Assembly (NCBI GenBank): GCA_001953115.1
Contig: LSSL01007695.1
Coordinates: forward strand, 1-18,880
DNA: 18,880 nucleotides
Direction of reading: 5' to 3'
Origin: Smittium mucronatum
Lineage: Eukaryota; Kickxellomycota; Harpellomycetes; Harpellales; Legeriomycetaceae
Part shown: in pieces, positions 1 to 18,880 of the stretch
Position numbering within the stretch: the stretch's first letter is position 1
How the letters are laid out: each line of letters opens with the position of its first letter
Made by a program: the position numbers and the translations under genes
The notes under the pieces: model-generated
What the model saw: only the letters and a program-made list of their open reading frames with translations
Databases searched by the model: none
Told to the model about the DNA's origin: nothing

Positions 1-2
1 TC

Positions 3-620
3 AGTCCGATCCAAGCCGAAATCGACAAAGCGGTCAGACTGGTAGTCAATGTGGGTAAATCTGCAGCCATGGAACGGATCCAAGCTGAGCTGGGGATAAA
101 ACCTGTATTCTTAAAAACTAGCACTGCTCGAGAGCGAGCATATAAAAAATGGCCTATATTAAAAGCTTGGATAGCCGACCTCATTGTGTCGCCCATCAGG
201 GACAGAATGGCCACCTGGGTGACCGGCAGTGCAAGATGGATAAAAAAATTTAGTGTTTGAAATTCAAAAGGTGATACAACCATCACCATAGTCGACAGCA
301 AAAATAAAAAATTCCGTTTTAAAATCCACCAGTGGACGGTGGACCGAAAAATAGGCGGAAAAGGAAACTGGATGAATCTTCTTCTGCTGTACCCTGACCT
401 AAAAATTGGCCTCTAGGACATCTGGAAAATGCGAATGGACCTTCCGGACCGTCCAGAGACTATCAAATATGAAATTTTTAGATGAGTAAATAATAAAATT
501 GTTTCTTCAGCAAAATCGATGTGCCTGAAGTCGTCGAATAACACTTATTAAATTTCTCTAGATGAGGCAAACAGCGAAATGAGACGATTACCGGTTCATA
601 CCTGCACCGAACTGCACTGA
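3..620 (+). pseudogene. LINE-type retrotransposon polyprotein, C-terminal fragment (broken)
   Basis: The frame is open from the window edge. It reads through TGA at 258, TAG at 414, TGA at 483 and TAA at 549 to TGA at 618, all in one phase. Visible motifs are VGKSAAMERIQAELGI, then ARERAYKKWP, then LKAWIADLI, then TWVTGSARW, and about 60 codons later LYPDLKIGL and DIWKMRM. This order resembles the region after the reverse-transcriptase domain of fungal LINE (non-LTR) elements, before the terminal Cys-rich motif; I recognise it from family style and ran no search. The reverse transcriptase itself would lie outside the window. The uninterrupted part from the edge to 260 has no ATG near its beginning, since codon 51 is GTG inside a longer frame. 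Without translated flanks the element cannot be named. It is non-functional as it stands. Confidence 0.65.
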
Positions 621-708
621 CATAAATAACTAACTTTCGAATTTCAATGAAACCCAGTTGGTGATAGTTAGAAAACTCCTTGGGTGAGGGGGTCTAAACA
701 ATCTTTAA

Positions 709-725
709 GTCAGCTACAAGCTGAC
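709..725 (+). other. Perfect 7-bp hairpin
   Basis: GTCAGCT (709-715), loop ACA, AGCTGAC (719-725). The stem contains four G-C pairs, unusual in this AT-rich setting. It stands ten bases before a second perfect hairpin. Stem-loops in 3' untranslated regions are used by some LINEs for recognition by their own reverse transcriptase; a role here is only inferred. The mirror is at 18156-18172. Confidence 0.6.
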
Positions 726-734
726 ACTGCCGAT

Positions 735-753
735 TTTCAATTTATGATTGAAA
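735..753 (+). other. Second perfect 7-bp hairpin
   Basis: TTTCAAT (735-741), loop TTATG, ATTGAAA (747-753). It is AT-rich and weaker than its neighbour, but perfect, and lies in the same presumed LINE 3' flank. The mirror is at 18128-18146. Confidence 0.55.
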
Positions 754-850
754 CAGCCTTATTTCTAATTGGCAGGTGCGTGCCCAGAACACTTAAGCTC
801 CAGAGTTTAAATGATTAATTACCCTTTTCGAAATAAAGTTATCGAGGTAT

Positions 851-873
851 GGGGCTGGGGTGCGGCATAGGGG
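851..873 (+). other. G-rich tract, possible quadruplex-forming sequence
   Basis: GGGGCTGGGG, then TGCGGCATA, then GGGG: three G4 runs plus one GG within 23 bases. It could fold as a two-layer G-quadruplex. It sits at the very edge of the higher-GC block, just before the AT desert. G-rich tracts are known in some LINE 3' untranslated regions. The mirror lies at 18008-18030 as a C-rich stretch on the + strand. Confidence 0.5.
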
Positions 874-880
874 AGCTTTA

Positions 881-3800
881 TGAAAATTTTTTTTTGATAA
901 TTTTCACTTATTTATTTTAACTTTTTGTTGAATTTAAAATTAACTTATCATAAAAATAAAAAATAAAAGCACAATTTTTTTTTTTGTAATTAAAAAAGAC
1001 TATATATATAAAAAATGCTCTATATAATACTGTGTACATTATGCAATTATTATTAGCTTGATTAAATAACTTTTTGATATGAAAAGGTAAATTTAGCTAT
1101 CAGTGTATAGTTCTAATGAAAATTTAGAGTGTTTTTTATCAATTACTATAAAAAAATCTTACTAAATATCTAAAAAATCATAAAAATTAATAAAACTAGT
1201 GTTTTTTTCGAATTTAGAGCTTTTTCTAAAAATTATTTGTTTGTATCACAAATATTTACTTAAGAAACAAGAAACTAAATAAATTCTTTATGGGCTATAA
1301 TTATTTAATTGGGGGTAAAATTGATACATTTTCAATTTTTTTATTTTAATAGGCATCAAAAATTATATATTTTTGAATTCTATTGACTCATTGGATGAAA
1401 TAAATTTATGAAAGATATACATCCAAAATATATAACGGATGTAGGGTAATAAAACTCAGTACACAATTTTATTAAGTGAAATGATGTCTAAGGGAATACT
1501 TATCACAATTTTTACTTAAATAAAGCAAGTAAGCATATTAATGGTTTTTAATTTTGTTTATTGAAAATTCAACTCTAAAAATTTTCCAATATTATCAAAA
1601 AAAATATCAAAAAAGTAAATAATCAATTTTATGATTTGAAATTTTTTTTTAAATTTTTTTTTTTTGATTTAAAATGCCGAATAATACAAACTTATCTTAT
1701 TTTGAAAAAATTTATCTCTTTTAATATGAATTGGGTATAATGATCAGGATTTTGAATGTTTATTTCTACTTTAAAATTTTTTATTACCATTTATATGAGA
1801 TATTATTATTGAGTTCATACGTTTTAATACTAAAAGAATACTTTTCTAGATTTAAATTTAAATTTTAAGGGAGGAAAATTCTCCATTATAGAAAATAAAC
1901 TGGTCAAAAAAATTATATAAAAAAATCTTTTTTTTTTACTATAAAATATAAGATATCAACAATATTCAAATTTGATTGTGTAAGGATCAAGTTTAATTGG
2001 AAAATATTAGCAATAAAAGGTAAACGGATATACTAGCCAAAAATACAAAATATAGAGAATGAGTCAAGTTGAAAATCCTATCCATTCCAAAATAGCTAAT
2101 CTTCCTTATTTATACCATTTTCTATTTTCTAAAAGTCGGTTATGCTTATTTGAGGCTTTCTTCATTGGATGAAATATTCAATCTGTTTACAGAATCTATT
2201 GGTTCATTACGGATTTTTTGAATTGATCGGCTTTTAAGCACTGAATAATGGTTTATAAAATACCAAAAAGAGTCCTTGCAGTTGTTAATTATCTATTCAC
2301 ACAAACATCACTAGCTAAATACTAAATAAATTAATAACATATAAATGATCATTATATCTCATGATAAATGTATAATGAGAAGAGATGCCAGAATTAATAG
2401 AATCCTGTCTTGCAAGAATTTATAAACTGTTAAAATTATTCTGATAAAAAATATAATATAAATAATACAAACATAATCATCTGTATACAAATATCATAAT
2501 CAACTAAAAAATTAAAAAATACTTGAAATTTTCGAAACAAAACTGGATATTTATGTAGAAAAAAAAGCAGTGTTTCGATCTATTGGACAAATTTTGATTA
2601 TTTTCTGATTCGTTTCCAAGAAAGATTCAAGTTTTACTTTAATTTAATCTTAATTTTGATTCGAATCATTTCATTTTCTTTAAGAACCAATATATTTTTT
2701 TCATTTTCAATCGTGAGAAAAAAATTTTAAATTCCCGATCATATAAAAAAATGATTAATTTTATCAAAAATTTTAATTTTGTGTCGATTTATTAACTTTG
2801 AGTCAAAATACTTAATTTTGTATTAATAAGCTAAAAATTTTCGGTTTTTATCATCTAACTTTTTATAAATTAATGCTCTAGCATGATATAAAAAGATAAA
2901 TATAATATAACCAATAAAAATTAATATTCCTATCATATACACATTATTAGCTTAATTCCAAACAAAGTTTAACATGTCCATATTTTTTTTCACACAGATA
3001 TTTTATTTAAAAATTACACCTATACTTCAAAAAACGAATAAAAAGGGTTGTAGGAAGGGTCTAAAATACCACATTTTCTCAGGAGCTAATAGAGTTCAGT
3101 TGGTTAAGATGCAATATTTAAATTAAAATTCTTATCCAAATTTATGAATGGCAATCTTAATAATAATACTATTAAGTTCAATTCCATTTAATTAAATTTT
3201 AATATAAATGTTATTTATTTCTATCAGAAAATTATCGTTATAATAAATTTATTGTGACCTGATAAATATCAATTAAATTAATAAAAAATCCTGTAATAAT
3301 TCTTGGAAAACTACTTTATATTATATTTTGACATTTAACAAATAATTGCGAAAAAATTCATAAAAACGTAATATGAATATAACTTAAAAAATTCTTCTAT
3401 CAATACGGGGATAAAAGAGATATTATGAATTTATAAAAAATTACCTATAAACAGTATTTTCATTTATACAAACGAAGAGTTATTTTTAAACTATGTTTAA
3501 TTCCATTTCTATGAACTAGAAACAATTTAAAAACTCAGAGTTTTACAATTTTACAAAAATTAATCTATAAAAATGTTTTGAAGAGGTGATTGGCAAAATA
3601 ATTTATTTCAATATGACACCTAACATTGTTTACAAGCCTTTTTGGTACAGCAAAATAAATTTTCGACTTATAAGTGTTAAGATATATAAAAATTCTTGAA
3701 ATTAAAAAAAATTCCAATTATAAGCGATATTTATGTTAGAAACTTATTAAAATAGGAGAATATTGATAAAGAGGAGATTTTATAGTGTACCCTATTCAAC

Positions 3801-4094
3801 GGAAATATTAAAACATTATTTTTATACAATAAAACTCAATAAATAATATTGAAAATGGTAATTTGAAAAATAGCTAAAGCAAATTAACTTAATATCATAA
3901 TTGGAAAATATAAGAAATATTATCAATATTTAAAAAAAGAAAGAGTAATTTAGCTAAAAAACAAATTTCATTGATTTAATGCATCATTTATTTTTTTTTA
4001 ACCTATTTAAGCTTCTAAAACCATTACTAACCTTGGCTAGCCCCAAAATTTCAAGTTTTTGTTACAATTTAACTTACTTTTATTTTTGTGAAAT
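881..4094. other. AT-rich desert without recognisable genes
   Basis: About 3.2 kb is dominated by A and T, with many homopolymer runs (T9-T11 near 886, 976, 1642 and 1655). Open runs are short. The longest I followed, on the minus strand around 2145-2290, is about 47 codons, which is expected by chance at this composition. The 14-mer CATTGGATGAAATA occurs at about 1390 and about 2164 and may be a relic of a dispersed repeat. The last part (3863-3985) is one half of an old diverged inverted repeat. I see no RNA gene. Confidence 0.75.
3863..3985 (+). repeat. Diverged inverted repeat, first half
   Basis: This segment aligns by eye with the reverse complement of 6086-6209 at roughly three-quarters identity. 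Shared blocks include ACTTAAT, CATAATTGG, a run of seven or eight A followed by GAA, TTAGC and TTGATTTA. The similarity seems to continue weakly outward on both sides (for example TTTAACAAA around 3334 with the complement of about 6529). It flanks the decayed frame at 4095-4778 and may be the terminal repeat of an old DNA transposon. AT-rich DNA aligns easily by chance, so a scored alignment is needed. The mirror is at 14896-15018. Confidence 0.5.
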
Positions 4095-4778
4095 ATGAAC
4101 AAATTATGTTTTAAAAACCCCTATATTCGTCTTGACTCAATTGCAACCACACCCTTTTTAGACGAAATTATATGTAAATTCCCACAAATTTTTGTTATTA
4201 AAATTAATGATTGTGATTTAAAGATTTTTATCGATTCCAAAAAAAAAAATCAACTAAGTTCAAATATTTTTAAAGATTGTAATCATTTTATTGATTCATC
4301 CTTCCAGTCACATCCCTAAGAATGTAATACCTTGCCGTAGTTTAAGGGCTTAATAATTTACTTTTCGAAGTACACTAAACTAAAATTTCACAAAGCGCTT
4401 TAATATTCTTGGTTGTTAATAGTGGAGACAGGGCACAGCGATTCGGAGGACTGTGATTCCAGAGAAAGACATCTTGAAACAGGAGTAACCGATATTCTAG
4501 TACAGCCTATTGGTATTCCAGTGCACAAGTCTAGCGACGAAAATCATACGGATCTCAGAGTCTAACGGCTATTTGTAGGAAAGCCATTTATATCAAACCC
4601 ACGTTTGGGTAGGAGTCTAATTATATTCATCCTGTTAGAAGTATGCTCTGAATAGGAGGTCATTAGTTTAAATGAACTGTTGTTAGTTGAAAAAGAGAAT
4701 TGTTCTTAACTTATTGTAAGTTCAGTCATACATCTACTTGAAGCAATGCCAGGGGGGGTCTTTCGGTTGGAAGATTGA
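4095..4778 (+). pseudogene. Decayed long reading frame of unknown family
   Basis: One phase stays mostly open for 228 codons. It starts with an ATG at 4095 and a 74-codon open part ending in TAA at 4317, then reads through TAG 4338, TAA 4401, TAA 4563, TAG 4653 and TAA 4707 to TGA 4776. The best-preserved later pieces are 4404-4562 (53 codons, with ETGHSDSEDCDSRER and TDILVQPIGIPVH) and 4566-4652 (VGKPFISNPRLGR). Six internal stops is few for this length here, and GC rises visibly from about 4320 to 4830. I do not recognise the protein. It lies between the halves of the old inverted repeat, so a dead transposon gene is plausible. The opposite strand is also open for about 44 codons near 4405-4541, so the strand is not certain. 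The 74-codon part alone could arise by chance. Confidence 0.4.
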
Positions 4779-6085
4779 ACCCTTTTCCCGTAGGTACGCA
4801 GCCGGTAGTCCGGCAGAGGATCTTATTTTATTTGGGATAATAGTCTTTTCTATAAGCTTTTTTCTTTTTTTAATATTTTTTTAATATAGTATTTAATGAC
4901 ATTATCTTACAATAAAATTCCGTGATACAAAAAAAATATTCTCACCGTCACAAAAATATAATAATAAAATCGTAATAAATACTTTTATATAAAAAAAATA
5001 TATTATCCTATATCAACCATTATACCAACATACCCTATCTACAAATGCATATTTTATTGCTAATTCAATAATGGAAAAAATAGATCCATTATACCAAATA
5101 AAATGAAGTTTAGATAATCTACCTATTCGATTTAGTATTTTTTCACCTTAATTTTAGCTACTGTGTTGAGAATAACATCCTTATAATCATTAAAAACCTT
5201 AAAAGAGTGGGGAAATGATTATAAAAGCTTTGAAATCACCCATAATCTTTCAAAAAATATCTTATTCAAATATCAAATGCTATTTTTTGACTTTTTAAAA
5301 TATAATATGTATAATAAACCTAAAAGAAATAAAATTATTGTAGCTTTTAACATAGATAACTAATCATGATTTTTTCTAAAAGCACCAAGATTAAATAATA
5401 AAAATCTAGGAATTAAATCGCACCAGATTTAATTAATTTTTCAGCATACTAGCTTCTAATTTTAGTCAGGATTTTGTCAAAAAAATTTGAGATGCTTCTT
5501 GTAAAGCCTTCATAACATATTTTTTAACTTTAAATAGGTTTTTTGAAGCTAGAAATAGAGATTATTTAATATTATAAAAAATATTCTATATATGGCAGAT
5601 TCTTTAGCAGACCATTTGTTTTACTAATAAAAGTTTCTTATTTCCTTTTTAATAAAAACACCCATTAATAATATCATGTTTATTATTCGCTTAACACATT
5701 AATAGTAGCAAAATAAAATAGTGTAAAATATAAAATATGAAAATTAACCACAAAATTTAAAACTATACATATTTAATAAACCAATAATGTGTCTTAATTA
5801 AAATAAATGTGTAATAATTCGACGAAAAAAGCGTCTTTTCAGGTACAAAATCTCCTATATAATCAATTTTTTTGCTTTTTTATCTAGAACTCAGCTTTTT
5901 CGACATTTTTAATCCTTAAAAGAAATATTTTAAACACCTCAGCTGAAAATTTAACTAATAGCCTAATAATATAATAACAGTTATTTATTTTTAAACTTAT
6001 GAAATAGTAACAAATTAAAGATTTTTGAGCTATGATAAGGACCATAATTTTTTTAGATATTTAAATATATAAGAGCCAATTGATA

Positions 6086-6209
6086 GGTGAATAAATCAAC
6101 CGAATTTTTTTTGGCTAATTATTATGCTTCTTTTTTTTAAAATACTAAAAATATGTCATATATTTGCCAATTATGGAATTAAGTAGATTTATTTATACTA
6201 TTTTTGCAA
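6086..6209 (-). repeat. Diverged inverted repeat, second half
   Basis: This is the partner of 3863-3985 in opposite orientation. The two halves are about 2.1 kb apart, with the higher-GC decayed frame at 4095-4778 between them. Their divergence contrasts sharply with the near-perfect outer palindrome, so they record a much older duplication or an old element's terminal repeats. The mirror is at 12672-12795. Confidence 0.5.
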
Positions 6210-7136
6210 TTATTTTAAAATCTTAATATTTTTGTAATTTACATTAAAAAAAATTAAGTCGCACAAAAAGACATTCAAACTCCTAATTAGGGTAATAGAA
6301 AATTTGAAATCCCTTTTTTATTTATATTAAATGCCAAGATATATTTAACAATATTGAAAGCTCTTATATTTTTTGAAAAAACACTTGATTAAATAAAAGA
6401 ATAATAATTTTCTCAAACCTATAAAATACTGATGTTACACAGGGAGTAATTTTTTTAGAAATTAACTAAAAAAACTCTAATTATTCATTTACGTTTAAAG
6501 ATATTTTAACGATTATTATTTTGTTAAAACAATTAAAATCTATAAATGTTAAATTTTAATAGTGAAAAAGATTTTTTAAATTAAAAAATTAATAAAATTA
6601 GCTTTATATAAGATATAGAGTAATAATCATAAAAGTTATTATTTTTGAAAATGTAAAGTTAAATGACACTTTATTTATTCAAAATAATCAAAATTTCAAA
6701 AAATAGTCATATTCTAAACTTTCAACATAATTTTTTTAAAAGATAGAGAAAAATATTCAGAGCATGGTGTAATTTTCAAAAATAATCTTGAAAATCAAGT
6801 TTTAGACTGAGTAAGATAAATATCTTTAGTATTTATTCTCAAATATTCGAAATACATATTACTTTAATAACTGAAAATACTAAAAATAAGTATTAGCGAA
6901 TAATAAGATATTTCAGGACTAAATTAATACAAAGAAAGAACCAAAAAATAGAAATTTCGAAAACATAATTAAAAAAATTTCTCTTTTTCATAAATATCGA
7001 ACAAAAAAAGATAAATTTGGGTAAAAAAAACTGTTATTTGTAGACTAAAAATATCGTTAATAGAAAAAAAAACTCAATGTAAGATTAGAAAGTAATATCT
7101 AAAAGAGTTTAATATTAGGGGTGAGAGTCTCGAGAA

Positions 7137-7156
7137 GGGATAAGGGATAAGGATGG
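7137..7156 (+). repeat. Short GGGATAA tandem with the only arm mismatch
   Basis: Two exact GGGATAA copies (7137-7143 and 7144-7150) are followed by GGATGG. At 7152 this arm has G, whereas the complement of 11729 gives T. This is the only position in 8361 bp where I found the arms to differ. It lies in a purine-rich patch (about 7113-7240) inside the AT desert. Confidence 0.8.
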
Positions 7157-7615
7157 AAATTAAGGAATATTATAAGAAAAATACAAGAAAAATATATATA
7201 TGTACGAGAGATAGCAAGTGTGAGCGGAGGGAAGTCAGGTTAAGATTTTTTGGAGTTAAAAAAAAGATGTATTTTTCGAACACAATTTGAAATAAATTTT
7301 AACTATTACTTATAATTGAATTTATAAATTCGCAAAATCAAATTTTTGATACATTTTATCGACTTAATTTGATTCTAAAATTTAATCCGATCTTTGAATA
7401 AAAGCTTACTATCATTAGGGTTATTAGCAAAGAAAGACATATTTTGGAAAATAATTGTAAAATTACACGAATTTTAAAATAATTGCTAAACTAGACGGGT
7501 TTTTAACTTAACTTTCATTTCTAGCGAATAGAAAAAGACATTAATTCCCAGGATAATTTATGAAAAATATTGAGAAATAAATTTTACCTTCAAGTTTTTT
7601 TATGCTTTTAACTGA

Positions 7616-8050
7616 GTGTTTTTATTGAAACTGGAAAAACATATCATTAACCCCCATTATTTAGGTCAAATTAATACCATTTTATCCACGCCAACAAATA
7701 TTGATCTAAAAGTGGAGCTAAAAATGAATGCAAAAATTAGGTATTCTCTGAACTTTGCTCATTTTTCGCGACTTTTATCTACATTTTCTATCAAAAATTA
7801 CTTTAAAAGTCGAGAAAAGGTCTTTAAAAACAGAAAACAAAACTTTTTGAAAGCATCAAATATTAATAAAAAAATAAAAGGGAAAGGTATTCCGATTCCA
7901 ATTCCGATTCCGATTCCCGCAATAAAAAACTTCGATTTCAATCTCGATATTTAAGACTATAAAACACGGTTTGAGAAGAGTCTAAAAAAAATATGAATTA
8001 ATACTGAGTCCGACTCTTTTCATACTTTGAATAGACTACAAAATGTAAAG
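7616..8050 (+). pseudogene. Broken exon-like reading frame with an Ile-Pro repeat
   Basis: The phase is open from TGA 7613 to TAA 7952 (112 codons, the longest in the window and unlikely by chance at this composition). It then continues in the same phase through TGA 7994 to AAG|GTAAGT at 8048-8056, a consensus-like eukaryotic 5' splice site. The open part begins with GTG; the first ATG is at 7724, giving 76 residues. It is rich in Lys, Asn, Ile and Phe, and five hexamers near the end encode Ile-Pro pairs. After the stops it reads FEKSLKK and then TESDSFHTLNRLQNVK. I recognise no family. It could be a nonsense-broken exon or a chance frame extended by the simple repeat. Confidence 0.35.
7889..7918 (+). 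repeat. Hexamer microsatellite, ATTCC(G/A/C) x 5
   Basis: Five tandem hexamers: ATTCCG, ATTCCA, ATTCCG, ATTCCG, ATTCCC. In the overlapping frame they give five Ile-Pro pairs. Copy number and order are the same in the mirror (10963-10992), which is notable because microsatellites normally drift quickly. Confidence 0.85.
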
Positions 8051-8771
8051 GTAAGTTTTTTTTTTTATATTCCAAACTCTTTTCAATAAATTTGTATAAT
8101 AATCATGTAAACGATGTTCAAATAGGATAGAGTTGAATTCAAAAAGAAATTTTTTTTGGTGAACCTGAAAATTTTGGTCATTAACTAGCCGTAAAACATT
8201 AGTAGGAACTAAAAGTCTAAGTTTTATAATAATTTTTTATTTTAAGGATATTAAAATCCGATATGGAAAGCACATGTAAGATATAACCAGTTGTTCTTTA
8301 TTTCAATAAATTGTTATAATAAAATGTCCAAAATTTATACTTTTTTTTTACCATTAATTTAGATTAAAAAATTTACGAAAACTTTGGTTCAATAGATTTG
8401 TTTTTATCTGATAACAATTAATCTTCAAAAATAGTTTTTAAAAATAAATTATACTTTGAAGATTTCTTAATAAAACAAAATTCGCGAAAAAAATTTTCAA
8501 TACCGGATAATAAATAGTTTCAAAAAAATTATTTAGGCAAAATATCTCTTTCTCAGATTGCCATTATATTTTTAACAGTCACCAGAGAAAATATTACTTT
8601 TTTCATCTATTGAAAAATGAAAGTCACACATGCAATTTTTCTGCACCAAAATTGAAATTTAAGAAGATTTATAAAATAAGCTCTCATATTAGGAAAAAAA
8701 TTTCAAAGACAAGGCAGATTGATAAAAAATAAATATACTTAAAAAATTAAATATCAGATATTAGTTATTCA
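8051..8771. other. AT-rich stretch across the left arm/spacer junction
   Basis: Bases 8051-8361 belong to the arm and 8362-8771 to the unique spacer. I see no gene. The junction sits just after a T9 run, and CTTTTTTTTTACCATTAATTTAG (8340-8362) looks like a splice acceptor whose final G is the first spacer base; I treat this as coincidence. Open frames are short and low in complexity. The right-hand counterpart of the arm part is 10520-10830. Confidence 0.7.
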
Positions 8772-10028
8772 ATGGCAAACAGAGGCTTATCATACTCTAA
8801 AAAACCTCACCTAGCTGATCAAGAGGAAAAAGTAAAAAAAATAATAAAAATTCGGAAAAAAATGCTGGTCCAATCCTGGAACTAATTTTGATTTCAAAAT
8901 AGAAACAAAGTATTCTAAAGATTTTCAATATTCCTCATCAGTGTAAGAAATATTTCTAAAACTCATTACCTGTAATATCAATTTATGCTTGCCATCATAA
9001 ATCCAGACATTCTGGGGACTTATTTATTACGTCCTCTATTTCTGGTACCGGTAATATCCTTCTAAATTATTTTGGAATATACCATATTGGATGCAACGAA
9101 ACATGGTCAGACTTCATTAATAATCTAAAAAAATGGAAACAATTTTATATCAGGAATTGAAAATCTTATGGTTATCAGGGATGTTTTGTTTAGAATTAAG
9201 ACAGCCATCACAAATATTTCCCCACTCGTTAAAAGTTCAATTTTTCTAGTTTATTTAAGTAGAAAAATGATTGGAAAATTCAAAAAAAGTAACCAATGAG
9301 TTTTGTTCTTCCACAAAAGAATTCAATATTATCTTGTTCATTTTAAAATGGTTGACATAAATTCTATAAACTTGTGAATTTTTAAATATCTTTAAGAAAT
9401 ATAATTGAAAAATGTGCATCGTCTCATTTTCTGGTTCCTTGATAAATGATTTTTTCCTAAAAACATTTGAATCCATCAATAATTGTATATTAAAAGAAAT
9501 ATAAATGTCTTACTTTGATATGATAAATAATTTAATATCAAAGATAGGTGAAAAAATATTTAAAAAATACAAGGAAAATATTGATGACTACTTATATGAT
9601 ACTCTTAAATCAAAGATTATGCTACAAAAAATTATTATTATTGGTTCAAACAGAAGAATGAGATGTTTGAAAAAGAATTTTTTAGCGTAGAAAGAGAAAA
9701 TGGGGATTCAATAATAGTAAATATTATGTAAAAGAGATGCACTTTGGGTTATTGAAAGAATATTTTATGCCATGTTTATATTTTTTTAATCTTTATAATA
9801 TTTGAGAATAGAACACAGTTTATATGATGTAAAAGTACACAAGAGGGAAAGCATAGTTTCAGCATATGAATCACATCTAATTCCATTGGATATATGCACA
9901 GTTTTATCAGATAATTTAACATAACACCCACCCTAGTAAAAATATTCACAGGAAGACCAAAGGTAAATAGAGTGACAATTTTCGGAGCAAAAATCGGAAA
10001 ATCAAAGTTATCAGCAAAAATAGCATAA
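8772..10028 (+). pseudogene. Mutator-like (MULE) transposase, heavily decayed
   Basis: The + strand shows MULE transposase landmarks in the right order, spread over three frames. In frame 1, 8845-8946 has NPGTNFDF, the usual NPG motif upstream of the catalytic core. In frame 2, 8960-9160 has PVISIYACHHKSR, matching the family's VISID-THLK with the first catalytic Asp replaced by Tyr at 8984, followed by SGTGNI and NETWSDF. In frame 3, 9129-9299 has LMVIRDVLFRIKTAITN (second Asp kept at 9180) and LSRKMIGKFKK. In frame 1, 9271-9614 has FESINN and then MSYFDMINNLISKIGEK. In frame 3, 9609-9731 has ERENGDSIIVN. In frame 1, 9718-9789 has LWVIERIFYAM where the SWIM zinc motif W-x3-GIPCxH should be. 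Frame 1 (9799-9924) and frame 3 (9915-10028) end with SAYESHLIPLD and TGRPKVNR. At least five frameshifts and stops at 9358, 9367, 9406, 9502, 9787 and 9796 make it dead. The part at 8772-8844 is a weaker N-terminal extension. The assignment rests on recalled family motifs, not a search. Confidence 0.75.
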
Positions 10029-10427
10029 AATTGATCCATAACGTGAGATCATTAAAAAGCATATATTTTTAAATATTTCTCGATTTTTACACAATTGATT
10101 GCAGAAAATTGCACTTTTTAAAAAAAACAATTTTTTAAAAAAAATCTCACACATTCATAACAAATATTTTACATTTTTGAGTATGGTTATGTTTAATTTT
10201 CACTTTAAATTTACGCAAAAATTAAATTTGAGCTTAAAATTATATTATTATTCGTTAATTCATAAAATCTGGATTATTTTTATTAATAAAATGAATATAA
10301 AAAATTAAAAATATTATTCATTGGTTAGTTAAATATTGAAAAAATACCTTTTAACTAAAAAGCAATGAAATTATATATGTATTAAAAAAATTCAAGTATT
10401 AAAAGATCGCATCATATTATATTAATT

Positions 10428-10484
10428 GAATGCGGGTATTTTCTAATAAAACATTAATCATCTCTGTAGCTCTACAGAATGCGG
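10428..10484 (+). repeat. Direct repeat GAATGCGG at both ends of a 57-bp segment
   Basis: GAATGCGG occurs at 10428-10435 and again at 10477-10484, inside the compound hairpin. CGCAT at 10408-10412 is inverted relative to the ATGCG at 10430-10434. Such GC-containing octamers stand out here. They could be a relic of a small insertion with target-site duplication, or chance. Confidence 0.4.
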
Positions 10485-10491
10485 ATGATTA
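10455..10491. other. Compound hairpin near the spacer/right-arm junction
   Basis: The outer stem is TAATCATC (10455-10462) with GATGATTA (10484-10491). Stacked directly inside it is TCTGTAG (10463-10469) with CTACAGA (10472-10478) around a two-base CT loop. The only unpaired part is ATGCG (10479-10483) on the 3' side. This gives 15 perfect pairs in 37 bases. It lies 28 bp from the start of the right arm and has no match at the left junction. Confidence 0.75.
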
Positions 10492-10830
10492 TATCTAAAT
10501 CAATATTAATACAAAAAAATAAATTAATGGTAAAAAAAAAGTATAAATTTTGGACATTTTATTATAACAATTTATTGAAATAAAGAACAACTGGTTATAT
10601 CTTACATGTGCTTTCCATATCGGATTTTAATATCCTTAAAATAAAAAATTATTATAAAACTTAGACTTTTAGTTCCTACTAATGTTTTACGGCTAGTTAA
10701 TGACCAAAATTTTCAGGTTCACCAAAAAAAATTTCTTTTTGAATTCAACTCTATCCTATTTGAACATCGTTTACATGATTATTATACAAATTTATTGAAA
10801 AGAGTTTGGAATATAAAAAAAAAAACTTAC

Positions 10831-11265
10831 CTTTACATTTTGTAGTCTATTCAAAGTATGAAAAGAGTCGGACTCAGTATTAATTCATATTTTTTTTAGA
10901 CTCTTCTCAAACCGTGTTTTATAGTCTTAAATATCGAGATTGAAATCGAAGTTTTTTATTGCGGGAATCGGAATCGGAATTGGAATCGGAATACCTTTCC
11001 CTTTTATTTTTTTATTAATATTTGATGCTTTCAAAAAGTTTTGTTTTCTGTTTTTAAAGACCTTTTCTCGACTTTTAAAGTAATTTTTGATAGAAAATGT
11101 AGATAAAAGTCGCGAAAAATGAGCAAAGTTCAGAGAATACCTAATTTTTGCATTCATTTTTAGCTCCACTTTTAGATCAATATTTGTTGGCGTGGATAAA
11201 ATGGTATTAATTTGACCTAAATAATGGGGGTTAATGATATGTTTTTCCAGTTTCAATAAAAACAC
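10831..11265 (-). pseudogene. Broken exon-like reading frame, mirror copy
   Basis: This is the identical mirror of 7616-8050 on the minus strand, including both in-frame stops, the Ile-Pro hexamers and the GTAAGT (complement at 10825-10830). The family is not recognised. Confidence 0.35.
10963..10992 (-). repeat. Hexamer microsatellite, mirror copy
   Basis: This is the reverse complement of 7889-7918 (GGAATC-type units), with the same number and the same variants in the same order. Confidence 0.85.
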
Positions 11266-14102
11266 TCAGTTAAAAGCATAAAAAAACTTGAAGGTAAAAT
11301 TTATTTCTCAATATTTTTCATAAATTATCCTGGGAATTAATGTCTTTTTCTATTCGCTAGAAATGAAAGTTAAGTTAAAAACCCGTCTAGTTTAGCAATT
11401 ATTTTAAAATTCGTGTAATTTTACAATTATTTTCCAAAATATGTCTTTCTTTGCTAATAACCCTAATGATAGTAAGCTTTTATTCAAAGATCGGATTAAA
11501 TTTTAGAATCAAATTAAGTCGATAAAATGTATCAAAAATTTGATTTTGCGAATTTATAAATTCAATTATAAGTAATAGTTAAAATTTATTTCAAATTGTG
11601 TTCGAAAAATACATCTTTTTTTTAACTCCAAAAAATCTTAACCTGACTTCCCTCCGCTCACACTTGCTATCTCTCGTACATATATATATTTTTCTTGTAT
11701 TTTTCTTATAATATTCCTTAATTTCCATACTTATCCCTTATCCCTTCTCGAGACTCTCACCCCTAATATTAAACTCTTTTAGATATTACTTTCTAATCTT
11801 ACATTGAGTTTTTTTTTCTATTAACGATATTTTTAGTCTACAAATAACAGTTTTTTTTACCCAAATTTATCTTTTTTTGTTCGATATTTATGAAAAAGAG
11901 AAATTTTTTTAATTATGTTTTCGAAATTTCTATTTTTTGGTTCTTTCTTTGTATTAATTTAGTCCTGAAATATCTTATTATTCGCTAATACTTATTTTTA
12001 GTATTTTCAGTTATTAAAGTAATATGTATTTCGAATATTTGAGAATAAATACTAAAGATATTTATCTTACTCAGTCTAAAACTTGATTTTCAAGATTATT
12101 TTTGAAAATTACACCATGCTCTGAATATTTTTCTCTATCTTTTAAAAAAATTATGTTGAAAGTTTAGAATATGACTATTTTTTGAAATTTTGATTATTTT
12201 GAATAAATAAAGTGTCATTTAACTTTACATTTTCAAAAATAATAACTTTTATGATTATTACTCTATATCTTATATAAAGCTAATTTTATTAATTTTTTAA
12301 TTTAAAAAATCTTTTTCACTATTAAAATTTAACATTTATAGATTTTAATTGTTTTAACAAAATAATAATCGTTAAAATATCTTTAAACGTAAATGAATAA
12401 TTAGAGTTTTTTTAGTTAATTTCTAAAAAAATTACTCCCTGTGTAACATCAGTATTTTATAGGTTTGAGAAAATTATTATTCTTTTATTTAATCAAGTGT
12501 TTTTTCAAAAAATATAAGAGCTTTCAATATTGTTAAATATATCTTGGCATTTAATATAAATAAAAAAGGGATTTCAAATTTTCTATTACCCTAATTAGGA
12601 GTTTGAATGTCTTTTTGTGCGACTTAATTTTTTTTAATGTAAATTACAAAAATATTAAGATTTTAAAATAATTGCAAAAATAGTATAAATAAATCTACTT
12701 AATTCCATAATTGGCAAATATATGACATATTTTTAGTATTTTAAAAAAAAGAAGCATAATAATTAGCCAAAAAAAATTCGGTTGATTTATTCACCTATCA
12801 ATTGGCTCTTATATATTTAAATATCTAAAAAAATTATGGTCCTTATCATAGCTCAAAAATCTTTAATTTGTTACTATTTCATAAGTTTAAAAATAAATAA
12901 CTGTTATTATATTATTAGGCTATTAGTTAAATTTTCAGCTGAGGTGTTTAAAATATTTCTTTTAAGGATTAAAAATGTCGAAAAAGCTGAGTTCTAGATA
13001 AAAAAGCAAAAAAATTGATTATATAGGAGATTTTGTACCTGAAAAGACGCTTTTTTCGTCGAATTATTACACATTTATTTTAATTAAGACACATTATTGG
13101 TTTATTAAATATGTATAGTTTTAAATTTTGTGGTTAATTTTCATATTTTATATTTTACACTATTTTATTTTGCTACTATTAATGTGTTAAGCGAATAATA
13201 AACATGATATTATTAATGGGTGTTTTTATTAAAAAGGAAATAAGAAACTTTTATTAGTAAAACAAATGGTCTGCTAAAGAATCTGCCATATATAGAATAT
13301 TTTTTATAATATTAAATAATCTCTATTTCTAGCTTCAAAAAACCTATTTAAAGTTAAAAAATATGTTATGAAGGCTTTACAAGAAGCATCTCAAATTTTT
13401 TTGACAAAATCCTGACTAAAATTAGAAGCTAGTATGCTGAAAAATTAATTAAATCTGGTGCGATTTAATTCCTAGATTTTTATTATTTAATCTTGGTGCT
13501 TTTAGAAAAAATCATGATTAGTTATCTATGTTAAAAGCTACAATAATTTTATTTCTTTTAGGTTTATTATACATATTATATTTTAAAAAGTCAAAAAATA
13601 GCATTTGATATTTGAATAAGATATTTTTTGAAAGATTATGGGTGATTTCAAAGCTTTTATAATCATTTCCCCACTCTTTTAAGGTTTTTAATGATTATAA
13701 GGATGTTATTCTCAACACAGTAGCTAAAATTAAGGTGAAAAAATACTAAATCGAATAGGTAGATTATCTAAACTTCATTTTATTTGGTATAATGGATCTA
13801 TTTTTTCCATTATTGAATTAGCAATAAAATATGCATTTGTAGATAGGGTATGTTGGTATAATGGTTGATATAGGATAATATATTTTTTTTATATAAAAGT
13901 ATTTATTACGATTTTATTATTATATTTTTGTGACGGTGAGAATATTTTTTTTGTATCACGGAATTTTATTGTAAGATAATGTCATTAAATACTATATTAA
14001 AAAAATATTAAAAAAAGAAAAAAGCTTATAGAAAAGACTATTATCCCAAATAAAATAAGATCCTCTGCCGGACTACCGGCTGCGTACCTACGGGAAAAGG
14101 GT
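11266..14102. other. AT-rich desert, mirror of 4779-7615
   Basis: This is the reverse-complement copy of 4779-7615, identical except at 11729. No gene is supported on either strand. It includes the mirrored old inverted-repeat half at 12672-12795. Confidence 0.75.
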
Positions 14103-14786
14103 TCAATCTTCCAACCGAAAGACCCCCCCTGGCATTGCTTCAAGTAGATGTATGACTGAACTTACAATAAGTTAAGAACAATTCTCTTTTTCAACTAACA
14201 ACAGTTCATTTAAACTAATGACCTCCTATTCAGAGCATACTTCTAACAGGATGAATATAATTAGACTCCTACCCAAACGTGGGTTTGATATAAATGGCTT
14301 TCCTACAAATAGCCGTTAGACTCTGAGATCCGTATGATTTTCGTCGCTAGACTTGTGCACTGGAATACCAATAGGCTGTACTAGAATATCGGTTACTCCT
14401 GTTTCAAGATGTCTTTCTCTGGAATCACAGTCCTCCGAATCGCTGTGCCCTGTCTCCACTATTAACAACCAAGAATATTAAAGCGCTTTGTGAAATTTTA
14501 GTTTAGTGTACTTCGAAAAGTAAATTATTAAGCCCTTAAACTACGGCAAGGTATTACATTCTTAGGGATGTGACTGGAAGGATGAATCAATAAAATGATT
14601 ACAATCTTTAAAAATATTTGAACTTAGTTGATTTTTTTTTTTGGAATCGATAAAAATCTTTAAATCACAATCATTAATTTTAATAACAAAAATTTGTGGG
14701 AATTTACATATAATTTCGTCTAAAAAGGGTGTGGTTGCAATTGAGTCAAGACGAATATAGGGGTTTTTAAAACATAATTTGTTCAT
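14103..14786 (-). pseudogene. Decayed long reading frame, mirror copy
   Basis: This is an identical mirror of 4095-4778 on the minus strand, with the same ATG (14784-14786), the same stops and the same higher-GC block (about 14050-14560). The family is unknown. Identical lesions in both copies place the decay before the arms were duplicated or homogenised. Confidence 0.4.
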
Positions 14787-17700
14787 ATTTCACAAAAATA
14801 AAAGTAAGTTAAATTGTAACAAAAACTTGAAATTTTGGGGCTAGCCAAGGTTAGTAATGGTTTTAGAAGCTTAAATAGGTTAAAAAAAAATAAATGATGC
14901 ATTAAATCAATGAAATTTGTTTTTTAGCTAAATTACTCTTTCTTTTTTTAAATATTGATAATATTTCTTATATTTTCCAATTATGATATTAAGTTAATTT
15001 GCTTTAGCTATTTTTCAAATTACCATTTTCAATATTATTTATTGAGTTTTATTGTATAAAAATAATGTTTTAATATTTCCGTTGAATAGGGTACACTATA
15101 AAATCTCCTCTTTATCAATATTCTCCTATTTTAATAAGTTTCTAACATAAATATCGCTTATAATTGGAATTTTTTTTAATTTCAAGAATTTTTATATATC
15201 TTAACACTTATAAGTCGAAAATTTATTTTGCTGTACCAAAAAGGCTTGTAAACAATGTTAGGTGTCATATTGAAATAAATTATTTTGCCAATCACCTCTT
15301 CAAAACATTTTTATAGATTAATTTTTGTAAAATTGTAAAACTCTGAGTTTTTAAATTGTTTCTAGTTCATAGAAATGGAATTAAACATAGTTTAAAAATA
15401 ACTCTTCGTTTGTATAAATGAAAATACTGTTTATAGGTAATTTTTTATAAATTCATAATATCTCTTTTATCCCCGTATTGATAGAAGAATTTTTTAAGTT
15501 ATATTCATATTACGTTTTTATGAATTTTTTCGCAATTATTTGTTAAATGTCAAAATATAATATAAAGTAGTTTTCCAAGAATTATTACAGGATTTTTTAT
15601 TAATTTAATTGATATTTATCAGGTCACAATAAATTTATTATAACGATAATTTTCTGATAGAAATAAATAACATTTATATTAAAATTTAATTAAATGGAAT
15701 TGAACTTAATAGTATTATTATTAAGATTGCCATTCATAAATTTGGATAAGAATTTTAATTTAAATATTGCATCTTAACCAACTGAACTCTATTAGCTCCT
15801 GAGAAAATGTGGTATTTTAGACCCTTCCTACAACCCTTTTTATTCGTTTTTTGAAGTATAGGTGTAATTTTTAAATAAAATATCTGTGTGAAAAAAAATA
15901 TGGACATGTTAAACTTTGTTTGGAATTAAGCTAATAATGTGTATATGATAGGAATATTAATTTTTATTGGTTATATTATATTTATCTTTTTATATCATGC
16001 TAGAGCATTAATTTATAAAAAGTTAGATGATAAAAACCGAAAATTTTTAGCTTATTAATACAAAATTAAGTATTTTGACTCAAAGTTAATAAATCGACAC
16101 AAAATTAAAATTTTTGATAAAATTAATCATTTTTTTATATGATCGGGAATTTAAAATTTTTTTCTCACGATTGAAAATGAAAAAAATATATTGGTTCTTA
16201 AAGAAAATGAAATGATTCGAATCAAAATTAAGATTAAATTAAAGTAAAACTTGAATCTTTCTTGGAAACGAATCAGAAAATAATCAAAATTTGTCCAATA
16301 GATCGAAACACTGCTTTTTTTTCTACATAAATATCCAGTTTTGTTTCGAAAATTTCAAGTATTTTTTAATTTTTTAGTTGATTATGATATTTGTATACAG
16401 ATGATTATGTTTGTATTATTTATATTATATTTTTTATCAGAATAATTTTAACAGTTTATAAATTCTTGCAAGACAGGATTCTATTAATTCTGGCATCTCT
16501 TCTCATTATACATTTATCATGAGATATAATGATCATTTATATGTTATTAATTTATTTAGTATTTAGCTAGTGATGTTTGTGTGAATAGATAATTAACAAC
16601 TGCAAGGACTCTTTTTGGTATTTTATAAACCATTATTCAGTGCTTAAAAGCCGATCAATTCAAAAAATCCGTAATGAACCAATAGATTCTGTAAACAGAT
16701 TGAATATTTCATCCAATGAAGAAAGCCTCAAATAAGCATAACCGACTTTTAGAAAATAGAAAATGGTATAAATAAGGAAGATTAGCTATTTTGGAATGGA
16801 TAGGATTTTCAACTTGACTCATTCTCTATATTTTGTATTTTTGGCTAGTATATCCGTTTACCTTTTATTGCTAATATTTTCCAATTAAACTTGATCCTTA
16901 CACAATCAAATTTGAATATTGTTGATATCTTATATTTTATAGTAAAAAAAAAAGATTTTTTTATATAATTTTTTTGACCAGTTTATTTTCTATAATGGAG
17001 AATTTTCCTCCCTTAAAATTTAAATTTAAATCTAGAAAAGTATTCTTTTAGTATTAAAACGTATGAACTCAATAATAATATCTCATATAAATGGTAATAA
17101 AAAATTTTAAAGTAGAAATAAACATTCAAAATCCTGATCATTATACCCAATTCATATTAAAAGAGATAAATTTTTTCAAAATAAGATAAGTTTGTATTAT
17201 TCGGCATTTTAAATCAAAAAAAAAAAATTTAAAAAAAAATTTCAAATCATAAAATTGATTATTTACTTTTTTGATATTTTTTTTGATAATATTGGAAAAT
17301 TTTTAGAGTTGAATTTTCAATAAACAAAATTAAAAACCATTAATATGCTTACTTGCTTTATTTAAGTAAAAATTGTGATAAGTATTCCCTTAGACATCAT
17401 TTCACTTAATAAAATTGTGTACTGAGTTTTATTACCCTACATCCGTTATATATTTTGGATGTATATCTTTCATAAATTTATTTCATCCAATGAGTCAATA
17501 GAATTCAAAAATATATAATTTTTGATGCCTATTAAAATAAAAAAATTGAAAATGTATCAATTTTACCCCCAATTAAATAATTATAGCCCATAAAGAATTT
17601 ATTTAGTTTCTTGTTTCTTAAGTAAATATTTGTGATACAAACAAATAATTTTTAGAAAAAGCTCTAAATTCGAAAAAAACACTAGTTTTATTAATTTTTA

Positions 17701-18000
17701 TGATTTTTTAGATATTTAGTAAGATTTTTTTATAGTAATTGATAAAAAACACTCTAAATTTTCATTAGAACTATACACTGATAGCTAAATTTACCTTTTC
17801 ATATCAAAAAGTTATTTAATCAAGCTAATAATAATTGCATAATGTACACAGTATTATATAGAGCATTTTTTATATATATAGTCTTTTTTAATTACAAAAA
17901 AAAAAATTGTGCTTTTATTTTTTATTTTTATGATAAGTTAATTTTAAATTCAACAAAAAGTTAAAATAAATAAGTGAAAATTATCAAAAAAAAATTTTCA
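14787..18000. other. AT-rich desert, mirror of 881-4094
   Basis: This is the exact reverse-complement copy of 881-4094. It has no recognisable gene on either strand and contains the mirrored half of the old diverged inverted repeat at 14896-15018. Confidence 0.75.
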
Positions 18001-18260
18001 TAAAGCTCCCCTATGCCGCACCCCAGCCCCATACCTCGATAACTTTATTTCGAAAAGGGTAATTAATCATTTAAACTCTGGAGCTTAAGTGTTCTGGGCA
18101 CGCACCTGCCAATTAGAAATAAGGCTGTTTCAATCATAAATTGAAAATCGGCAGTGTCAGCTTGTAGCTGACTTAAAGATTGTTTAGACCCCCTCACCCA
18201 AGGAGTTTTCTAACTATCACCAACTGGGTTTCATTGAAATTCGAAAGTTAGTTATTTATG

Positions 18261-18878
18261 TCAGTGCAGTTCGGTGCAGGTATGAACCGGTAATCGTCTC
18301 ATTTCGCTGTTTGCCTCATCTAGAGAAATTTAATAAGTGTTATTCGACGACTTCAGGCACATCGATTTTGCTGAAGAAACAATTTTATTATTTACTCATC
18401 TAAAAATTTCATATTTGATAGTCTCTGGACGGTCCGGAAGGTCCATTCGCATTTTCCAGATGTCCTAGAGGCCAATTTTTAGGTCAGGGTACAGCAGAAG
18501 AAGATTCATCCAGTTTCCTTTTCCGCCTATTTTTCGGTCCACCGTCCACTGGTGGATTTTAAAACGGAATTTTTTATTTTTGCTGTCGACTATGGTGATG
18601 GTTGTATCACCTTTTGAATTTCAAACACTAAATTTTTTTATCCATCTTGCACTGCCGGTCACCCAGGTGGCCATTCTGTCCCTGATGGGCGACACAATGA
18701 GGTCGGCTATCCAAGCTTTTAATATAGGCCATTTTTTATATGCTCGCTCTCGAGCAGTGCTAGTTTTTAAGAATACAGGTTTTATCCCCAGCTCAGCTTG
18801 GATCCGTTCCATGGCTGCAGATTTACCCACATTGACTACCAGTCTGACCGCTTTGTCGATTTCGGCTTGGATCGGACT
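18261..18878 (-). pseudogene. LINE-type retrotransposon polyprotein, C-terminal fragment (mirror copy)
   Basis: This is the identical mirror of the fragment at 3-620, read on the minus strand and entering from the right window edge. It carries the same in-frame stops (TGA at 18621-18623, TAG at 18465-18467 and so on) and the same ARERAYKKWP and TWVTGSARW motifs. Both copies therefore point inward, with their 3' ends toward the spacer. Identical nonsense mutations in both copies mean the element decayed before the arms were duplicated or last homogenised. Confidence 0.65.
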
Positions 18879-18880
18879 GA

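What the first reader, a model, noticed from the sequence alone, without database searches (positions are those of the whole stretch)
1..18880. 8.4-kb inverted repeat with one mismatch around a 2.2-kb unique core
The arms pair base for base (x with 18881 minus x) over 8361 bp, with one difference and no indels, even through T11 and A11 runs and a hexamer microsatellite. Such near-perfect palindromes are rare in assembled genomes, and this one carries no working gene to explain selection. The symmetry reaches exactly to both window edges, so the repeat is longer, the window was cut to it, or the contig ends there.
Basis: seen in the sequence. Interest (0 to 1): 0.8.

Follow-up and report, generated by a model that had tools for sequence, protein, structure and literature searches.

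The report
Assembly-made palindrome around a transposon
The near-perfect 8.4-kb mirror image is probably a short-read assembly mistake seeded by a real, much shorter inverted repeat belonging to an ordinary-looking DNA transposon relic in an insect-gut fungus.

Summary
The symmetry is real in the letters: 8361-bp arms, one mismatch (7152/11729), 2158-bp core. The window is one whole contig (C2865) of a 73.8-Mb fungal draft, Smittium mucronatum by one protein match. Contig C455 repeats window 8362-18880 letter for letter and ends on the same base, but its left arm is only 1388 bp and then runs into different DNA. So the inverted repeat with two different flanks is 1388 bp; the window's outer 6973 bp per side are one flank used twice. 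The draft repeats contigs elsewhere (C1922/C1549/C505), and six contigs break inside arms of related repeats. Best reading: an assembler's path, not a chromosome (0.85). No reads were available, so this is inferred. The inner repeat belongs to a Mutator-like family: shared termini, inward-facing pairs (12 of 12), exact 9-bp target duplications in 3 of 6 relatives. A relative at C746 has 847 bp of single-locus flank inverted on both sides, so real outward growth may occur.

The parts
1..6973 (+). Left outer arm: exact reverse-complement copy of the right flank; probably one flank used twice by the assembler
   Evidence: 0 mismatches to 11908-18880; C455 has other DNA on this side of the arm
11908..18880 (+). 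Right flank R, shared letter for letter with C455, both contigs ending on the same base
   Evidence: C455:17947-28465 = window 8362-18880, 0 differences in 10519 bp
6974..8361 (+). Left copy of the 1388-bp inverted repeat that C455 supports with different flanks
   Evidence: C455:16559-17946, 2 differences (7640, 8313) to this copy
10520..11907 (-). Right copy of the 1388-bp inverted repeat
   Evidence: C455's left copy differs from it at 3 of 1388 positions
7418..11463 (.). MULE-like element relic, 4046 bp: 944-bp terminal inverted repeats and 2158-bp core without recognised coding
   Evidence: terminus GGGTTATTAGC at both ends; arm-core-arm relatives in C535 and C2290; shorter elements share only the terminal 45-235 bp with it
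8362..10519 (.). Core, 2158 bp; about 70% and 67% identical to the cores in C2290 and C535, similarity spread over all six frames
6974..7417 (.). Left 444 bp of inverted repeat lying outside the element terminus (partner 11464-11907)
   Evidence: terminus position; repeat boundary
11464..11907 (.). Right 444 bp of inverted repeat lying outside the element terminus
7152..7152 (+). Only arm mismatch; G here equals the left copy in C455, partner at 11729 equals the right copy
3..260 (+). 85-aa open frame in a dispersed multicopy repeat, partner 18621-18878; resembles the end of a LINE frame (recalled, no database match)
   Evidence: 40 of 249 candidates scored in the genome, all matching; no Pfam match
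4314..4940 (+). Dispersed repeat of about 620 bp, partner about 13941-14567

Best explanation
The 8.4-kb palindrome is most likely an assembly artefact built on a real 1388-bp inverted repeat. Shown: C455 holds left flank L - arm - core - arm - right flank R, with R ending on the same base as the window; the window is R - arm - core - arm - R. Shown: the window's left arm is a mixture, with the left-copy letter at 7152 and right-copy letters at 7640 and 8313, then R flank. Inferred: the assembler merged the two arm copies, walked from R through arm, core and arm, and on leaving the arm took R again instead of L. Arms of 1388 bp exceed the 500-bp paired-end inserts reported for sister genomes, so pairs could not decide. 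The inner 4046 bp (7418-11463) is a relic of a Mutator-like (MULE-like), non-autonomous transposon with 944-bp terminal inverted repeats, and the repeat runs 444 bp past its ends.
For: C455 identity, divergence point and three arm differences; both contigs end on one base. The outer 6973 bp of the window's arms have 0 differences against 3 in 1388 between the C455 arms: about 15 expected at that rate; Fisher exact test, which allows for the small count, p = 0.005. Redundant contigs elsewhere: C1922 and C1549 share their first 10,000 bp exactly, and 100-base samples at 25,001 are the same sequence 12 bp out of step; C505 shares 2069 bp from its first base. Six contigs end or start inside related arms: C1330, C2416, C1948, C2289, C789, C2290. 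Sister genomes: 2x125-bp Illumina, assembled with RAY v2.3.1, three of four with a 500-bp library only (PMC5954228, passages); Capniomyces also RAY v2.3.1 (PMC4974312, passages). Site 8313 lies 48 bp from the core edge, so a path joining the right-copy letter to the left core edge needs a short word length (inference). Element family.
Against: No reads were available, so no coverage or pair test. C455 comes from the same assembly and could itself be wrong, and part of its far left flank reads N. The method passages seen concern sister genomes, not S. mucronatum; its own paper is not held. Zero outer differences also fit a very recent real duplication. C746 shows inverted copies of single-locus flank beside such an element. 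Besides the window and C455, one redundant contig group was examined, and no survey for other edge-to-edge palindromes was possible.
Confidence: 0.85

Rival explanations
1. A real palindromic allele. A break beside the element on the L side was repaired by the left arm pairing with the right arm and copying the R flank outward (break-induced or fold-back repair), giving R-arm-core-arm-R on one homologue, nucleus or extra molecule, while C455 is the other form.
For: Inverted repeats are known to drive rearrangements of this sort (PMC10164571, PMC7467729: abstract starts in a search listing). C746 carries 847 bp of single-locus flank inverted on both sides of a related element (3 differences in a 1003-bp stretch that includes it). 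S. mucronatum is listed with a 0.75% SNP ratio, so two forms could coexist (passage).
Against: One crossover from left arm to right flank predicts left-copy letters on the core side of the switch; the window has right-copy letters at 7640 and 8313 and the left-copy letter at 7152, the outermost site. No difference in 10519 bp between C455 and the window is odd for two forms at 0.75% SNPs, though an assembler that merges variants could hide them. Both contigs end on the same base.
Confidence: 0.12
2. A physical library chimera: fold-back during amplification joined an R-arm-core stretch to its own reverse complement.
For: Palindromic reads are described for whole-genome amplification (PMC13265396, abstract start in a listing).
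Against: A fold-back copy has no reason to carry the left-copy letter at 7152, nor a 2158-bp spacer whose sequence and arm joins are those of the L-flanked contig. Whether this DNA was amplified is not known.
Confidence: 0.03

Closest known systems
Short-read graph misassembly at long inverted repeats (as with chloroplast inverted repeats)
   Same: Near-identical inverted arms longer than the insert leave the order and orientation of flanks undecided; a passage of PMC7092973 says that short reads cannot reliably assemble a plastome with two such repeats
   Different: Here one contig shows two flanks, a second shows the same flank twice, and both were kept in the draft
Mutator-like elements (MULEs)
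   Same: Terminal repeats of hundreds of bases; exact 9-bp target duplications in 3 of 6 relatives; MULE transposase domains abundant in the genome (131 matches), one lying between a terminus pair in C319
   Different: This copy has no recognised transposase and no target duplication; its repeats (944 bp) are longer than the 14-500 bp that PMC6446971 gives for the elements it analysed (passage), and run 444 bp past the terminus
Inverted duplications by fold-back or break-induced repair
   Same: A flank appears inverted on both sides of a spacer
   Different: No molecule is shown; arm letters do not fit a single switch

Membership tests
Real large palindrome / inverted duplication | Single molecules run from flank through both arms into flank | not testable with these tools
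   no reads; both arms end at contig ends
Real large palindrome / inverted duplication | The same flank lies on both sides in other sequence of the locus | tested here: not met
   C455, the only other contig with the core at full identity, has a different left flank beyond 6974; it is from the same assembly, so not independent
Assembly artefact | An alternative contig carries the same core and arm with another flank | tested here: met
   C455
Assembly artefact | Assembly repeats contigs or breaks at such repeats elsewhere | tested here: met
   C1922/C1549/C505; six contigs ending or starting in related arms
Assembly artefact | Read depth and read pairs do not support the second R copy | not testable with these tools
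   no reads
Mutator-like element (MULE) | Long terminal inverted repeats | tested here: met
   944 bp, 7418-8361 and 10520-11463; MULE repeats commonly hundreds of bp (PMC6446971, passages)
Mutator-like element (MULE) | 8-11 bp target site duplication | tested here: not met
   C455 copy 4 of 9 letters, C746 2 of 9; relatives C369, C876, C535 9 of 9; C273 7, C341 5, C1619 4. The copy is called MULE-like, not filed as a MULE
Mutator-like element (MULE) | DDE transposase | tested here: not met
   no C2865 or C455 row among the 131 MULE-domain matches (150 of 232 candidates scored); core similarity not frame-specific

The most novel reading that the evidence does not exclude
MULE-like elements of this fungus act as seeds of growing palindromes: their long terminal repeats, kept alike within each element, pair across the element and copy flanking DNA outward in steps (little or nothing in six relatives, 444 bp at C455, 847 bp at C746, at least 7.4 kb in the window), so that the window is a real, very young palindromic allele.
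Probability: 0.1. Interest if true: 0.6.

Novelty: not a real feature. Interest (0 to 1): 0.17.

Why it matters
It warns that edge-to-edge palindromic contigs in short-read drafts can be path duplicates around genuine shorter inverted repeats. If the rare alternative were true, it would give a naturally occurring series of transposon-seeded palindromes at successive sizes in one genome, a handle on how inverted repeats grow and stay alike.

Tried and rejected
Structured RNA, tRNA and protein-coding explanations: no usable match (neighbouring contigs). Coding core: tblastx similarity to the C2290 and C535 cores appears in all frames alike, so no reading frame is favoured. A reciprocal L-arm-core-arm-L contig: searches with arm and core find full-identity copies only in C2865 and C455, and the readable part of the L flank that was searched matches only itself at full identity among the 40 candidates scored. 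The ribosomal RNA search meant to place the organism gave no answer three times; the organism was named instead from one protein, a 301-aa peptidase frame of contig C2400, which returned a Smittium mucronatum record at 100% identity on a contig of the same length. A centromere-like reading (homogenised inverted repeats round a core) came up from a listing (PMC7292649, abstract start) and was dropped because related architecture occurs as dispersed short elements with shared termini and, in part, target duplications. One search was made for papers naming Smittium, transposable elements and MULE together: 0 papers in the held library.

Weak points of the element argument. The short elements share only the terminal 45-235 bp with the window's element, and one of the six (C1619) gave no match to it in that comparison. 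The 11-base terminus register for target duplications was picked by eye from the printed flanks and before it was scored, and the 6-of-720 reassignment count does not correct for that; 3 of 6 relatives have no exact duplication. The correlation of arm length with arm identity (9 elements, rank correlation 0.97) is a lead only: alignment ends and assembler merging of near-identical arms could both produce it, and the C2290 arm is cut by a contig end.

Full report
What is in the window. Positions 1-8361 are the reverse complement of 10520-18880 with one mismatch at 7152 and no indel; the core 8362-10519 is 2158 bp; GC is 24.7%. The window is the entire contig C2865 of a genome of 73.8 Mb in 2957 contigs. 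None of the 7 ORFs of 80 aa or more exceeds 112 aa, and Rfam, ARAGORN and Pfam gave nothing usable.

Where it comes from. A 301-aa peptidase frame on contig C2400 of the same genome returned one record, Smittium mucronatum AYI68_g7197, at 100% identity, on a contig of the same length, 15260. A paper lists this species at 7,797 scaffolds over 1 kb, 102.35 Mb and 26.05% GC (PMC5954228, passages seen); the held genome is smaller, so short contigs are probably left out (inference). The same passages say that four sister species were read as 2 x 125 bp Illumina, three of them with a 500-bp library only and one with added mate pairs, and assembled with RAY v2.3.1; Capniomyces was assembled with the same program (PMC4974312, passages). 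For S. mucronatum itself the method paper is not held, so that it was done alike is inference.

The second contig. Window 300-8361, searched against the genome, is found whole and at full identity only in C2865 and in C455; the core likewise. C455 is 28465 bp. Its 17947-28465 equals window 8362-18880 with 0 differences in 10519 bp, and both contigs stop on the same base. Its 16559-17946 equals window 6974-8361 with 2 differences, and beyond that point C455 carries other DNA. Thus the inverted repeat with two different flanks is 1388 bp, with 3 differences between its copies (7152, 7640, 8313). The window's left arm has the left-copy letter at 7152 and the right-copy letter at the other two, and is followed by the right flank. 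A single real crossover would leave left-copy letters towards the core, which is the opposite; a path through a graph in which the copies have been merged can mix letters freely. Site 8313 is 48 bp from the core edge, so such mixing needs a short word length (inference from the coordinates). The outer 6973 bp have no difference, against 3 in 1388 between the two C455 arms: about 15 expected at that rate, Fisher p = 0.005. A very recent real duplication would also show none.

Is the draft prone to this? C1922 and C1549 share their first 10,000 bases exactly, and 100-base samples at 25,001 are the same sequence 12 bases out of step; C505 begins at base 7932 of that sequence and shares the 2069 bases compared. 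When the fetched pieces of 36 contigs were compared with each other at 98% identity or more over 150 bases or more, the groups found were C2865/C455, C1922/C1549/C505, C2290/C789 and C1948/C2289; the last two are arms of related elements cut by contig ends. C1330, C2416, C1948, C2289, C789 and C2290 end or start inside arms of related repeats. So long inverted arms were a barrier for this assembler, and at least one other contig was emitted more than once.

What the inner repeat is. Homologous arm-core-arm structures lie in C2290 (arms at least 541 bp, 98.7%) and C535 (957 bp, 99.2%), with cores about 70% and 67% like that of the window. The arms contain a terminus motif; the pattern TTAGCAAAAATAGACAGGTTTT with up to 3 mismatches occurs 65 + 63 times against 7 + 5 for its reversed control. 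Of the 100 places printed of those 128, merged to 90, neighbours within 6 kb face inward in 12 of 12 cases, 9 of them 1.9-2.3 kb long. Six such elements were fetched. Arms inside one element are 92.6-98.2% alike in five and 82% in the sixth, whereas the nine of fifteen pairs of elements that aligned along most of their length on the strand searched are 66-81% alike. These six share only their terminal 45-235 bp with the window's element, and one of them (C1619) gave no match to it. Of six elements with separate flanks, three have an exact 9-bp direct repeat just outside an 11-base terminus (C369, C876, C535), the others 7, 5 and 4 of 9; the register was chosen by eye first. Matching right sides to left sides in every order gives three or more exact pairs in 6 of 720 arrangements. 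MULE transposase domains give 131 matches in the genome (150 of 232 candidates scored), none of them in C2865 or C455; one, C319:2297-2566, lies between two inward-facing termini, 27.8 bits against a cut-off of 27.6. Long repeats and 8-11 bp duplications are characteristic of MULEs (PMC6446971, passages), though 944 bp is beyond the 14-500 bp stated there for the elements analysed. The copy in the window, 7418-11463, lacks target duplication and transposase, so it is called MULE-like and not filed as a member.

Growth past the terminus. At C455 the repeat runs 444 bp beyond the element's end, and at C746 847 bp beyond it; searched against the genome, that C746 stretch has 2 matches, both at C746. 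Flank inverted on both sides and absent direct duplications fit copying of one flank after insertion. At C455 the outer stretch also resembles dispersed repeats at 67-70%, so there it might instead be part of another repeat. This growth is the part worth keeping, and it is the reason why a real palindromic allele keeps a probability near 0.1.

Verdict. The decisive test is a read-pair count at 6973/7152.

Noticed in passing
L063/L064 (C746:14477-15323 and 17356-18202): 847 bp of sequence found only here stand in inverted orientation on both sides of a MULE-like element, beyond its termini; overall inverted repeat 1191 bp at 99.2%, different flanks beyond.
   Followed up: partly
L048, L049, L057-L062 and C455: Arms within one element are in most cases more alike than elements are to each other, and longer arms are more alike (9 elements, rank correlation 0.97); may reflect gene conversion or assembler merging.
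   Followed up: partly
L050, L051, L052: Contigs C1922, C1549 and C505 repeat one another.
   Followed up: partly
G000 as a whole: 131 matches to the MULE transposase domain, many with stops inside, in a genome whose paper lists a repeat ratio of 2.94% (passage); some rows with equal score and length on two contigs may be further duplicated contigs or recent copies.
   Followed up: no
window 1-300 and 18581-18880: Multicopy element end with an 85-aa frame; many of its 40 scored copies lie within a few hundred bases of a contig start, as expected if repeats stop the assembler.
   Followed up: no
window 4314-4940 and partner: Dispersed repeat of about 620 bp, dozens of copies at 83-85%; the two copies in C455's left part are 81-83% like it.
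   Followed up: no
window 7889-7917: Hexamer repeat ATTCCG, 4.8 copies, inside the element's terminal repeat; kept in both arms.
   Followed up: no
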